DNA from: Halorubrum cibi
GTDB taxonomy: Archaea; Halobacteriota; Halobacteria; Halobacteriales; Haloferacaceae
NCBI RefSeq assembly: GCF_900182635.1
Contig: NZ_FXTD01000008.1
Span: 123,459 to 187,458 of the forward strand
Reading direction: 5' to 3'
DNA length: 64,000 nucleotides
Each line of letters starts with the position of its first letter. Position 1 is the stretch's first letter. Under the pieces are notes generated by a model that made no database searches, had not been told where the DNA came from, and saw only the letters and a program-made list of their open reading frames with translations. A program made the translations under genes and the position numbers. Shown here piece after piece: positions 30,344 through 63,999 of this stretch.

Positions 30344-30800
30344 GGCTCCGTTGGAATCCTCCGTAGACGATATGTCATAATCCGGCCGTGGTCAGTATAG
30401 ACGAGGAAGTGAGCGATCGCCGAAGCGGTGGCGCGCCTCCGAGTGCCCCGCAGGGGCACGAGGAGCCCGCGAGGGACGCGGTGAGCACTCGAAGAGTGCG
30501 AACCGCGAGGCTGGGGAGGTGTGAGGTGCGGGGCCGTGCGGGGTGGGACTCAAAGGGGCAGTCGCGAGGACGAAGCCCGGCGAAGCAAGCACCGCAGTGA
30601 AGGAGCGACAGCGACTGAGCGAGGAGCGCAGCGAGCCGCGCGAGTCCTCGTGGCTGGGGCTTTGGACGTGTTCACCGCGCCAGCAACTACTCCCTTCTTC
30701 TCACCTCGATCACTTACGAAACACCCGCCATATAAGCGCTCTTCAGCGACCGGCTGGTTCAGTCCGAATTCTATCTGAAAAAGGGGAGCTCAACGGAGCC
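30344..30800 (+). mobile_element. MITE-like element 2 (457 bp, IS6-type ends)
   Basis: The element is bounded by GGCTCCGTTGGAATCCT on the left and, as inverted repeat, AGCTCAACGGAGCC on the right. The 8-bp flanks AAACTCGT and AAACTCGC (7/8 match) look like a target duplication. The first ~60 bp and the last ~65 bp resemble the ends of the element at 47921-48370. There is no transposase gene; almost the whole interior is an inverted copy of the interspersed repeat. It ends 13 bp from the membrane-protein stop at 30814. Confidence 0.7.
30400..30686 (-). repeat. Interspersed intergenic repeat, copy B
   Basis: This is the reverse complement of the copy at 1723-2036. Shared blocks include GCGCGGTGAACAC, CAAAGCCCCAG, GCGAGGACTCGCGCGGC-like hairpins, TGCCCCTTTGAGTCCCACCCC and CACCTCACACCTCCCCAGCC. 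It lies inside the MITE-like element. The 30189-30813 gene-free interval consists of the tRNA-Gly trailer, this repeat and the element's ends. Confidence 0.7.
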
Positions 30801-47845: not shown

Positions 47846-47920
47846 AGGAAACTGGCAACGCACGACGCAACCGCACGACGGTAGCTACCTGACTCCTCAA
47901 CGGATAAGTACCGTTAGATA

Positions 47921-48370
47921 GGCTCTGTTGAAATCCTTAGAAAGTGATATATTTCGACTCGGTGGCGGTCAGTACAGATGAAGCGCAAATTGTTCAGTAC
48001 AGAAAAATGTTCAGTATAGGATAGATAGACGAAAAGAACATCCCAAGTGCGATCTACCACCAGAGCTATTGATATATCGTTTCTACGTGGGATATGGTCA
48101 GGCTCAAATTTGTGTTCGCCGCTGGCGTTCTTGCGGCTCTTGGTGTAGCAGTCACTCAAGTAGTACAGCTGACGTTCATCGAGTCTACGGTAGTGAACGC
48201 AGCTATGGAGGGCCTTTTTGTCGGAGTAATGGTCTATCTTGGTCTCAAAACTCTCGAACTCTCTGTGAATCCGCAGTAGTTTTCGCTGGGTATGCTGGTT
48301 CGTCCGCAGCTCTCATCGACCGGCTGTTTCAGGCGAGAATATATCTGAAGAATAGGATTTCAACAGAGCC
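47921..48370 (+). mobile_element. MITE-like element 1 (450 bp, IS6-type ends)
   Basis: GGCTCTGTTGAAATCCT at the left is matched by AGGATTTCAACAGAGCC at the right (perfect 17-bp terminal inverted repeats). The 8-bp flanks GTTAGATA (47913-47920) and GTTAGATA (48371-48378) are identical, the target duplication of the IS6 family. There is no transposase; the interior holds a putative 61-residue membrane-protein gene. The element is inserted in the 5' flank of tnpB, 12 bp before the ATG after the duplication. Confidence 0.85.
48094..48279 (+). CDS. Small two-span membrane protein carried by the MITE
   Basis: A 61-residue ORF inside the 450-bp element. Two hydrophobic segments (about 5-27 and 36-54) are separated by a short polar turn, and MVRLKF gives a basic start. 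A TATA-like GATATAT (48071-48077) lies about 20 bp before the ATG, the spacing expected for leaderless haloarchaeal transcripts. There is no homologue that I recognise. Possible roles (toxin-like peptide, membrane sensor) are speculation. Confidence 0.5.
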   Translation: MVRLKFVFAAGVLAALGVAVTQVVQLTFIESTVVNAAMEGLFVGVMVYLGLKTLELSVNPQ

Positions 48371-48390
48371 GTTAGATAGTAATCTGAAAC

Positions 48391-49620
48391 ATGGAGGTGC
48401 GTCGAACTGCGCCGGTCAAGCTTGTTGTTCCCGATGAGCGGTACGACGACCTCCACGAATCCGCGCGACAGTTCCTTCACTGTGCGAATCGTGCCGCTGA
48501 ATTCTGTTGGGACGACGACTCCTACGCCAACTGCGTTACGGCGAACTCGACGGCACGGGACGCGCTCTACGAACAACTACGAGAGGAAACTGATCTTACT
48601 GCGAACCTCGTTCAAGAGGCGATCCGTCGTGCCGTCCAAGCGACGAAAGGATGCGTCGAACGGTGGAAACAGGGCAAACGCGTGAGCCAGCCGGAGTTCA
48701 CGTCGTGGAGCATGGTCTACGACAAGCGAAGCGCGACGTTCTACCGCAACCGTGTGTCTCTCTCGACTGTCAACGGGCGCGTCGAGTGCGACTTTGAACT
48801 TCCGGCGGATAGCCCGACTCCCTACGAACAGTACGTTCTCTCCGAGGACTACGAGTTCCGGGCGAGCACACTCCAATACGACAAGGCGACTGACGAGTTT
48901 TACTTCCACATCACGACGCGAAAGTACGATACCGACGAGTCCGAGGTTTCGGAAGATACCGAGCACCAAACAGTTCTTGGTATCGACCTCGGCGTCAACA
49001 GCCTCGCAGTAGCTTCGACCGGCACGTTCTGGCAGGGCGACGAATACGATCACTGGTGCCGTGAATTCGAGAAGCGACGTGGTGAGATGCAACAGCGCGG
49101 GACGCAAGCGGCGCACGACGCCCTGCTTCGCCTCGGAAAGCGGGAAGAAGCGTGGCGGAAACAGTACATCCACACCGTTGCCAACGAAATCGTCTCGGAA
49201 GCTGTCGATCACGATTGCGGTGTTATTGTGTTTGAGGACTTGACCAACATCCGAGAGCAACTTCCACAGGCGAAGTGGCACCACATCTGGGTGTTCCGAC
49301 ACCTCGCCGAGTATGTGGAGTACAAAGCGCCCGAACAGGGCGTCTCCGTGAAGCAAGTTGAGCCGAACCACACGTCCCAACGCTGTTCTCGAACGGACTG
49401 TGGGTTCACGCACGAGTCGAACCGTGACGGCGAACACTTCCATTGCCAGAAGTGTGGCTACGAGGTCAACGCAGACTACAATACAGCGAAGAATATCGGG
49501 CTACGCTATGCCCGAAAGCGACAACACAGACTCCGTTCCTCGCCCAAGTCGGGGAGCGGAGAGGCACCAGTAGACGTGCGTATAACTGGTGGGACGTTCA
49601 CGAGAGCAGAGCTCTCGTGA
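48391..49620 (+). CDS. tnpB: TnpB (IS200/IS605 type RNA-guided nuclease)
   Basis: A 409-residue TnpB. RuvC-like catalytic residues are Asp199 (GIDLGVN), Glu282 (FEDLTNI) and Asp362 (NADYNTAKN); the zinc finger has Cys332, Cys337, Cys352 and Cys355. The intact catalytic triad suggests an active nuclease guided by an omega RNA encoded at the 3' end. No TnpA is nearby, so it is an IS1341-type solo tnpB. A MITE is inserted just upstream, separating it from its left end. Confidence 0.92.
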   Translation: MEVRRTAPVKLVVPDERYDDLHESARQFLHCANRAAEFCWDDDSYANCVTANSTARDALYEQLREETDLTANLVQEAIRRAVQATKGCVERWKQGKRVSQPEFTSWSMVYDKRSATFYRNRVSLSTVNGRVECDFELPADSPTPYEQYVLSEDYEFRASTLQYDKATDEFYFHITTRKYDTDESEVSEDTEHQTVLGIDLGVNSLAVASTGTFWQGDEYDHWCREFEKRRGEMQQRGTQAAHDALLRLGKREEAWRKQYIHTVANEIVSEAVDHDCGVIVFEDLTNIREQLPQAKWHHIWVFRHLAEYVEYKAPEQGVSVKQVEPNHTSQRCSRTDCGFTHESNRDGEHFHCQKCGYEVNADYNTAKNIGLRYARKRQHRLRSSPKSGSGEAPVDVRITGGTFTRAELS

Positions 49621-63495: not shown

Positions 63496-63999
63496 GGCGC
63501 TGAATTAGTGGGTGTGAGATAAAAATATTCTGAATAATCATATTATAGAATATCATATTTAGAGATATCATCGACCGAGGATTCCATCAAAGCAAAATTG
63601 GAATAGATCCGAGATCGAACATATACGGTGGCAATCTTATTGGAAATACTACTTTTTGTCTCAAATCACGAAAGGGATTTATAAACTATTTGTGTCATTT
63701 GAGATGATATGGCAACGAAAAGTCAGTTCCAGCGACTATCATATCTCATAGATGGTGGCGAATTAGTAGGAGTTCAACAGGGCCACGAATTTCTGAACGG
63801 TCTGAGTTGGTTTGGCATCTCCTAGGTGGTCTCGGTGGTAATGCTCTCGTTCGGGGAGGGCATCGCGATCGTCCAGGTAGTATAATCTGCGTCAAAATAG
63901 CAAGAACGCTCTTGTGTAGCACATTGTTGATTTCAGAGAGTTGCTTTGACGGCGTATTTGAGCGCTTTTCGTCCGGGTTTGCGGTAGAGTTCTCGTCTG
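63496..63999. other. AT-rich accessory tract at window end
   Basis: This 504-bp stretch is much richer in A/T than its surroundings (for example TATAAACTATT near 63680). It holds a putative leaderless 38-codon ORF and the end of a minus-strand reading frame. The composition and fragmentary genes suggest a foreign or mobile-element tract. Confidence 0.6.
63709..63825 (+). CDS. Putative small leaderless ORF
   Basis: A 38-codon frame starting MATKSQFQRLSYLIDGGEL and ending at TAG. A TATA-like TTATAAAC lies 25-30 bp upstream of the ATG, as for leaderless transcripts. It may be the remnant of a larger gene. No function is recognised. Confidence 0.3.
   Translation: MATKSQFQRLSYLIDGGELVGVQQGHEFLNGLSWFGIS

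What the first reader, a model, noticed from the sequence alone, without database searches (positions are those of the whole stretch)
47921..48370. 450-bp IS6-like MITE carrying a leaderless small membrane-protein gene
The element has perfect 17-bp terminal inverted repeats (GGCTCTGTTGAAATCCT), identical 8-bp target duplications (GTTAGATA) and no transposase, which fits a non-autonomous IS6-family element. Unlike a simple internal deletion, it holds a 61-codon ORF with two predicted spans and a TATA-like box placed for leaderless transcription. A mobile unit moving a promoter and a small membrane protein could be a cargo, addiction or regulatory module.
Basis: partly seen in the sequence, partly recalled or inferred. 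Interest (0 to 1): 0.7.

Follow-up and report, generated by a model that had tools for sequence, protein, structure and literature searches.

The report
Transposase-free gene cassettes of salt-loving archaea
The 450-bp element is one of a widespread set of inserted DNA units in salt-loving archaea that share the same ends but mostly carry different genes, here one predicted to encode a small membrane protein; they are probably moved, and loaded with new genes, by the transposase of a related larger element.

Summary
The element at 47921-48370 has perfect 17-bp inverted ends, an 8-bp target duplication and an exact empty site in another Halorubrum genome. It is not IS6-like: its ends match an IS5-family transposon (ISHla2 group) with an intact copy in the same genome. 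Its last 66 bp have matches in 144 of 293 genomes of the order. Between constant ends the copies carry mostly different genes. All 35 duplication-flanked relatives that keep the transposase have a 364-1893-bp slot after it; among 62 pairs with at least 90% identical transposases only 3 share slot homology. Transposase-less cassettes like the window's carry similar cargo and in a few cases a homologous gene. The boundary is sharp, about 12 nt after the transposase stop and 64-76 nt before the right tip. The 61-codon gene has relatives in 10 other genomes of 392 and looks under purifying selection. Verdict: a mobile insertion cassette of a haloarchaea-wide family with interchangeable cargo. Cargo capture through a neighbour's end is inferred from nested elements; the protein's function is untested.

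The parts
47913..47920 (.). left copy of the 8-bp target duplication GTTAGATA
   Evidence: sequence; empty site in L212
47921..47937 (+). left 17-bp terminal inverted repeat
   Evidence: 17/17 complementary to the right one
47921..47964 (+). cassette-type left stub (34-bp end plus spacer), shared by cassettes with other cargo
47965..47977 (+). junction motif GCGGTCAGTACAG; the same motif follows the transposase stop codon in many transposase-bearing relatives
47987..48019 (+). two further copies of a TTCAGTAYAG motif
   Evidence: direct repeat D1
48068..48078 (+). TATA-like stretch, 16-26 nt before the ATG (promoter untested)
   Evidence: sequence
48094..48279 (+). 61-codon passenger gene, predicted two-span small membrane protein
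48295..48370 (+). right-end module of about 76 bp, shared with the transposase-bearing relatives
48354..48370 (-). right 17-bp terminal inverted repeat
48371..48378 (.). right copy of the 8-bp target duplication
48391..49620 (+). tnpB-like gene just downstream; the cassette lies 20 bp before its start (context, not part of the cassette)
30344..30800 (+). second, older member of the family in the window (457 bp, duplication AAACTCGT/AAACTCGC), GC-rich interior without a convincing ORF

Best explanation
The element is a transposase-less mobile gene cassette (mobile insertion cassette) with the same 17-bp terminal repeats, the same kind of right end and the same 8-bp target duplication as IS5-family (ISHla2-group) transposons of haloarchaea, whose transposase likely moves it in trans, and it carries a passenger gene predicted to encode a two-span membrane protein. 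Shown: the ends, the duplication, the empty site, an intact transposase of that group in the same genome, and low dN/dS in the gene family. Also shown: the family is modular; a left part (either a stub of about 45 bp, or left end plus transposase gene), a short junction motif, a variable cargo and a right end of about 76 bp occur in many combinations. Inferred: new cargo is captured when the transposase pairs its left end with the right end of a neighbouring copy, after which inner ends decay; cassettes and transposase-bearing forms interconvert by replacing what lies left of the junction motif. Untested: transposition, expression, and what the 61-aa protein does (my guess is a small membrane accessory protein useful to the host).
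For: Ends, duplication and empty site. IS5-family transposase with identical 17-bp ends and a perfect duplication in the same genome. 36 of 80 fetched loci hold a repeat pair with an 8-bp duplication (at most one mismatch), reversed-repeat control 0; second sample chosen by the left end, 22 of 47. All 35 duplication-flanked transposase elements have a slot with an ORF; 3 of 62 pairs with transposases at least 90% identical share slot homology. Sharp boundaries. L108 (cassette) and L112 (with transposase) are 92% identical over 439 bp from the junction motif on. Composite or nested units L097, L104, L086/L087. dN/dS 0.22-0.47 against the window.
Against: No movement or expression was measured. 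dN/dS among the relatives themselves runs from 0.18 to 1.02. For 12 of 30 cassettes and 7 of 35 transposase slots an ORF as long as the longest one appears in more than 10 of 100 shuffles, in part because fixed trimming cut true ORFs. In the wider transposase set (n = 25) the motif after the stop is only half conserved (0.68 and 0.64 bits). Clear remnants of inner right ends were found in only 2 of 136 slot-strands, fewer than capture by end-hopping might leave. The fetched L112 copy lacks a matched duplication.
Confidence: 0.85

Rival explanations
1. IS6-family MITE, as first proposed: the ends belong to an IS6 transposon and the ORF is incidental.
For: The 8-bp duplication and a TIR beginning GGCNCTGT resemble IS6 elements (recalled); three IS6-type transposase matches exist in the genome.
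Against: The transposase that carries these ends is IS5 family. An IS6-type transposase found as passenger in L116 has its own ends GGCACTGTCTAGTTTAG, 8 of 17 positions different. No pair of the element's ends lies around the genome's IS6 matches.
Confidence: 0.03
2. Plain non-coding MITE with chance ORFs: the interiors are neutral filler and the reading frames mean nothing.
For: Some members have no convincing ORF (window 30344-30800, L077, L096, L119, L087). The window's ORF is matched in length by 7 of 100 shuffles.
Against: Longest ORFs with two or more predicted spans: 10 of 30 cassettes and 17 of 35 transposase slots against shuffle means of 0.02 and 0.07, maximum 1. Known enzyme and transporter domains among passengers. 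Low dN/dS for the window's family.
Confidence: 0.07
3. Cargo exchange by ordinary homologous recombination between element copies, not by transposase end-hopping; the cassette is the same, the loading mechanism differs.
For: Constant segments flank the slot; L108 and L112 are collinear from the junction on.
Against: RDD cargo lies in opposite orientation in L106 and L159, which exchange between flanks would not give; composite L097 and L104 and nested L086/L087 show the use of alternative ends. Neither excludes recombination for other copies.
Confidence: 0.3

Closest known systems
Mobile insertion cassettes (MICs; term in PMC3129680, passages)
   Same: IS-type ends and target duplication around a passenger gene, no transposase, movement expected from a cognate transposase
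   Different: Here one end family serves many unrelated passengers across much of an archaeal order, with a shared junction motif
Transporter IS (tIS; PMC3129680 and PMC7986276, passages)
   Same: IS with an extra gene unrelated to transposition: the 35 transposase elements read here
   Different: All 35 carry a slot, and its content is mostly different even between near-identical transposases
ISHla2 / ISHxa2, IS5 family (names from plasmid annotation)
   Same: Transposase group, ends, 8-bp duplication
   Different: The window element lacks the transposase gene and has a different left stub
ISH2 and HqIRS32, haloarchaeal MITEs with an ORF (PMC3119063 and PMC10264941, passages)
   Same: About 520-531 bp, transposase-free, one ORF said to be expressed
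   Different: ISH2 has 10-bp duplications and termini related to ISH8; it is one repeated element, not a set with changing cargo
Transposon passenger Hlac_3088 of Halorubrum lacusprofundi (PMC10544981, passages)
   Same: L200 carries a PGF-CTERM protein as passenger behind an ISHla2-type transposase, probably that gene (locus tag not checked)
   Different: Described in print as a single case
Integron gene cassettes (recalled)
   Same: Many unrelated small genes between constant short sequences
   Different: Here DDE-transposase ends with target duplications; integrase and attC sites were not looked for

Membership tests
Mobile insertion cassette | IS-type inverted ends and target duplication, no transposase gene | tested here: met
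Mobile insertion cassette | passenger gene not involved in transposition | tested here: met
   61-codon gene with relatives and low dN/dS, also found away from such ends in L144
Mobile insertion cassette | moved in trans by the cognate transposase | not testable with these tools
   cognate transposase present and intact in the same genome; movement needs an experiment
IS6 family | IS6-type (DDE_Tnp_IS240) transposase with these ends | tested here: not met
IS5 family, ISHla2 group (as non-autonomous derivative) | same terminal repeat, right end and duplication length as transposase-bearing members | tested here: met
IS5 family, ISHla2 group (as an IS proper) | encodes its own transposase | tested here: not met
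   no transposase ORF inside
MITE (characteristics as listed in PMC3119063) | inverted repeats related to a known transposon, often a target duplication, too short to code for a transposase | tested here: met
ISH2-type element | 10-bp target duplication (PMC10264941) | tested here: not met
   8 bp here; ISH8 termini were not compared by sequence
Toxin-antitoxin or addiction module | partner gene or recognised toxin or antitoxin family | tested here: not met
   one ORF; no family over cut-off in Pfam or NCBIfam, none in PADLOC

The most novel reading that the evidence does not exclude
Haloarchaea run a transposon-based gene-cassette system: one IS5-type transposase serves a large pool of interchangeable cargo genes held between a short junction motif and a constant right end. 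Cargo passes between transposase-bearing carriers and transposase-less cassettes by exchange at that junction and by end-hopping, an archaeal counterpart in effect of integron cassettes, rich in small membrane proteins.
Probability: 0.4. Interest if true: 0.85.

Novelty: new variant of a known kind. Interest (0 to 1): 0.7.

Why it matters
Many small membrane proteins of haloarchaea have no known role or history (general knowledge). A family of cassettes that shuttles such genes, and ordinary enzymes and transporters, between genera, with a readable carrier and boundary, gives a concrete route for gene exchange in these archaea and a testable mechanism of gene capture by a simple transposon. 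One passenger that probably belongs here was already flagged in print as a candidate virus-exclusion gene (PMC10544981, passage).

Tried and rejected
A scan of genome contigs with the 61-aa protein gave no relative; the protein database and whole-genome searches did. Phage records: no match. Viral contigs: no exact match to a 28-base right-end pattern. A hairpin at the junction (GACC...GGTC) was considered by eye on the rows and dropped, since the 5' arm varies while the 3' arm stays GGTC; no covariation count was run. Inner end remnants were sought with weight matrices: right-type hits above the 99.9% null in 2 of 136 slot-strands (one of them only just), left-type hits nine in seven elements. 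In one search, 30 of 33 cassettes were used: L082 (transposase-type left end) and L099 (atypical left end) were left out by choice and L087 as too short; fixed trimming also cut some true ORFs (L069, L108, L135, L136), which works against the claim. In one search pairs without a duplication were added for cargo comparison only. For dN/dS, L144 and L155 (length differences), L156 and L157 (frame not found or partial) were left out. The IS6 relation was rejected. A defence-family search on ten small passengers gave one weak match, E 0.007. The window protein's weak Pfam matches (LydA holin E 0.024, DUF3917 E 0.052) are below cut-off. No structure was predicted.

Literature: ten searches. No title or abstract start in those capped listings describes this family as a cassette system; the library lacks most subscription papers, and two IS reviews that I asked for by id were not held. 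Passages of PMC3119063, PMC10544981, PMC3129680, PMC7986276, PMC11078007 and PMC10264941 were read; no paper was read whole.

Full report
What was checked. The element at 47921-48370 has 17/17 complementary ends and GTTAGATA on both sides. Its site is empty in other Halorubrum genomes: in L212 the same flanks meet across one GTTAGATA, and in L211, L213, L214 and L226 the flank alignments also overlap by 8 bp. It sits 20 bp before the start codon of a tnpB-like gene. PMC3119063 reports for Haloquadratum that 30 of 31 MITE targeting events hit PATEs or IS605-type transposons (passage). Contig sizes identical to named plasmids place the genus as Halorubrum.

Not IS6. In the window's own genome the element has 11 matches, itself and ten partial ones at the ends of copies with other insides. 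The repeat pattern gave 44 places within three mismatches, against two for the reversed pattern. Among the regions fetched, the 1535-bp element at C7:196286-197820 has perfect ends, a perfect duplication and a 273-aa transposase. NCBIfam calls that protein an IS5 family transposase, 209.8 bits against a cut-off of 140. Plasmid records name close relatives ISHla2 and ISHxa2. Around the three IS6-type matches of the genome no pair of such ends was found, only one lone 3-mismatch hit.

A family with constant ends and changing cargo. In the same genome other duplication-flanked copies carry a 114-aa membrane ORF (C1:223541), a 65-aa two-span ORF (C7:94760), a 549-aa 7TM histidine kinase (C7:201464, one mismatch in the duplication) and several ORFs in a 2663-bp unit (C5:236609). 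The last 66 bp of the window's element have a match in 144 of 293 genomes of the order and 58 of 87 genera (at most a few places scored per genome), and in 52 of 97 genomes of a class-level draw, whose rows are all of the same order. I fetched 80 regions in rank order; 36 of 80 hold a repeat pair with an 8-bp duplication of at most one mismatch (37 elements, 31 with an exact duplication), and the reversed-repeat control gave none. A second sample, chosen by the left end in named genomes, gave 22 of 47, 21 of them with an ORF of 45 aa or more. The titles of all 47 records are haloarchaeal. An identical 417-bp cassette lies in Halorussus litoreus and Natrinema pallidum with different duplications, which points to recent transfer.

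The transposase-bearing relatives. The transposase is found at E 1e-80 or better in 43 of 146 genomes. Forty regions from that list were fetched, near rank order; left out were places already held, and G079:C60, G060:C3, G068:C1 and G051:C1 above the last one taken. With earlier loci, 62 transposase hits were read, 35 of them with a matched duplication. All 35 have a slot of 364 to 1893 bp between the transposase stop and the right tip; the longest slot ORF is at least 59 aa in each. Of the 27 without a matched duplication, seven show no right end within the fetched DNA, and in the rest the nearest right end with at most two mismatches lies 319 bp or more after the stop. Of 62 pairs whose transposases are at least 90% identical, 3 share any slot homology; of all 595 pairs, 8 do. 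In the ten elements closest to the own-genome copy, conservation stays high up to 12 nt after the stop (1.3-1.4 bits) and then falls to the null level; in the wider set of 25 those 12 nt hold 0.6-0.7 bits. Right ends (n = 40) are strongly conserved over the last 64 nt and weakly to 76. The segment after the stop reads GCGGTCAATACAG or a variant, and most cassettes' left ends close with the same motif (24 of 33 by a loose pattern). The longest passenger ORF points towards the transposase gene in 24 of 35.

Cargo. Thirty passengers were scanned with Pfam. Over cut-off: RDD, low-molecular-weight phosphatase (arsenate-reductase-like), GNAT, TehB-type methyltransferase, redoxin, PHO4 transporter, DUF4870, DUF7344, DUF6517, PBP, PQQ propeller, a weak amine oxidase, and one passenger that is itself an IS6-type transposase; 14 of 30 had no match. 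A PGF-CTERM surface protein is the passenger in H. lacusprofundi L200. It is probably the gene that PMC10544981 calls Hlac_3088, a transposon passenger whose expression exceeded that of the S-layer gene at one time point of infection (passage); the locus tag was not checked. Longest ORFs with at least two predicted spans occur in 10 of 30 cassettes (shuffle mean 0.02, maximum 1) and 17 of 35 transposase slots (mean 0.07, maximum 1); mean coding fraction is 0.63 and 0.68 against 0.39 and 0.35 in shuffles. For 12 of 30 and 7 of 35, however, more than 10 of 100 shuffles give an ORF as long. Span calls are simple hydropathy.

The window's gene. Relatives: 7 protein clusters besides its own, and 10 genomes besides its own among 392. 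Against seven that align without gaps dN/dS is 0.22 to 0.47; among those relatives it ranges from 0.18 to 1.02. In five of nine aligned relatives (L148, L149, L151, L152, L153) a GTACAG motif lies 84-95 nt before the conserved start, as one does 91 nt before it in the window; L150, L154 and L155 have none. L152 keeps a recognisable cassette left end with one mismatch but no right end within the fetched DNA. In L144 (Natrinema) the plasmid search found no such ends (only the ORF part of the query matched), so the gene also occurs outside recognisable cassettes. Some relatives have N-terminal extensions, so the start codon and the leaderless promoter remain open.

Modules and capture. L108 (cassette) and L112 (with transposase) are 92% identical over 439 bp, from the junction motif in one and two nucleotides after the transposase stop in the other to 5 nt before the right tip. 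Other cargo is shared between the two forms at lower protein identity: L012 with L165/L166 (36%), L026 with L173 (36%), L138 with L160 (29%), L082 with L159 (58%). RDD cargo sits in opposite orientation in L106 and L159. L097 reads left end, 80-aa ORF, right end, 373-aa gene, right end, with one duplication (one mismatch) outside all. L104 joins an inverted cassette and a transposase element inside one perfect duplication. L086 contains a 178-bp sub-unit, sharing its right end, that also lies alone at another site of the same genome with its own duplication (L087). I read these as use of alternative ends by one transposase. A composite of ISH2 and part of ISH8A bounded by one duplication is described in PMC10264941 (passage).

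Limits. Nothing here shows movement, expression or function. The samples were drawn by similarity to this element and are not a census.

Noticed in passing
window 30344-30800; L096 104-708; L119 2064-2713: Three members of the family share a GC-rich interior (GC 0.63-0.65) with similar frames but no convincing ORF; a non-coding or decayed cargo.
   Followed up: partly
window 63768-63784: A lone copy of the terminal repeat with two mismatches (minus strand) near the window's end; no partner with a duplication found in the window.
   Followed up: no
G000 C5:236609-239271 (L022), C15:576-1097 (L020), C7:110558-111178 (L023), C20:5183-5656 (L021): Copies with a second type of subterminal sequence (GATAG, then TACAGAGCGCG- or TACAGAGGGTG-like): a sister set of cassettes in the same genome.
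   Followed up: partly
L116 1602-2343: An IS6-type transposase with its own ends lies in the slot of a transposase element directly after the stop codon, a probable later insertion.
   Followed up: partly
L090 2312-2824; L122 112-449; L124 1143-2632: Right ends repeated in tandem with one or no left end, possible intermediates of cargo capture.
   Followed up: partly
L025, L160 and other elements: In 24 of 35 transposase elements the longest passenger ORF points towards the transposase gene, so it would need its own promoter.
   Followed up: no
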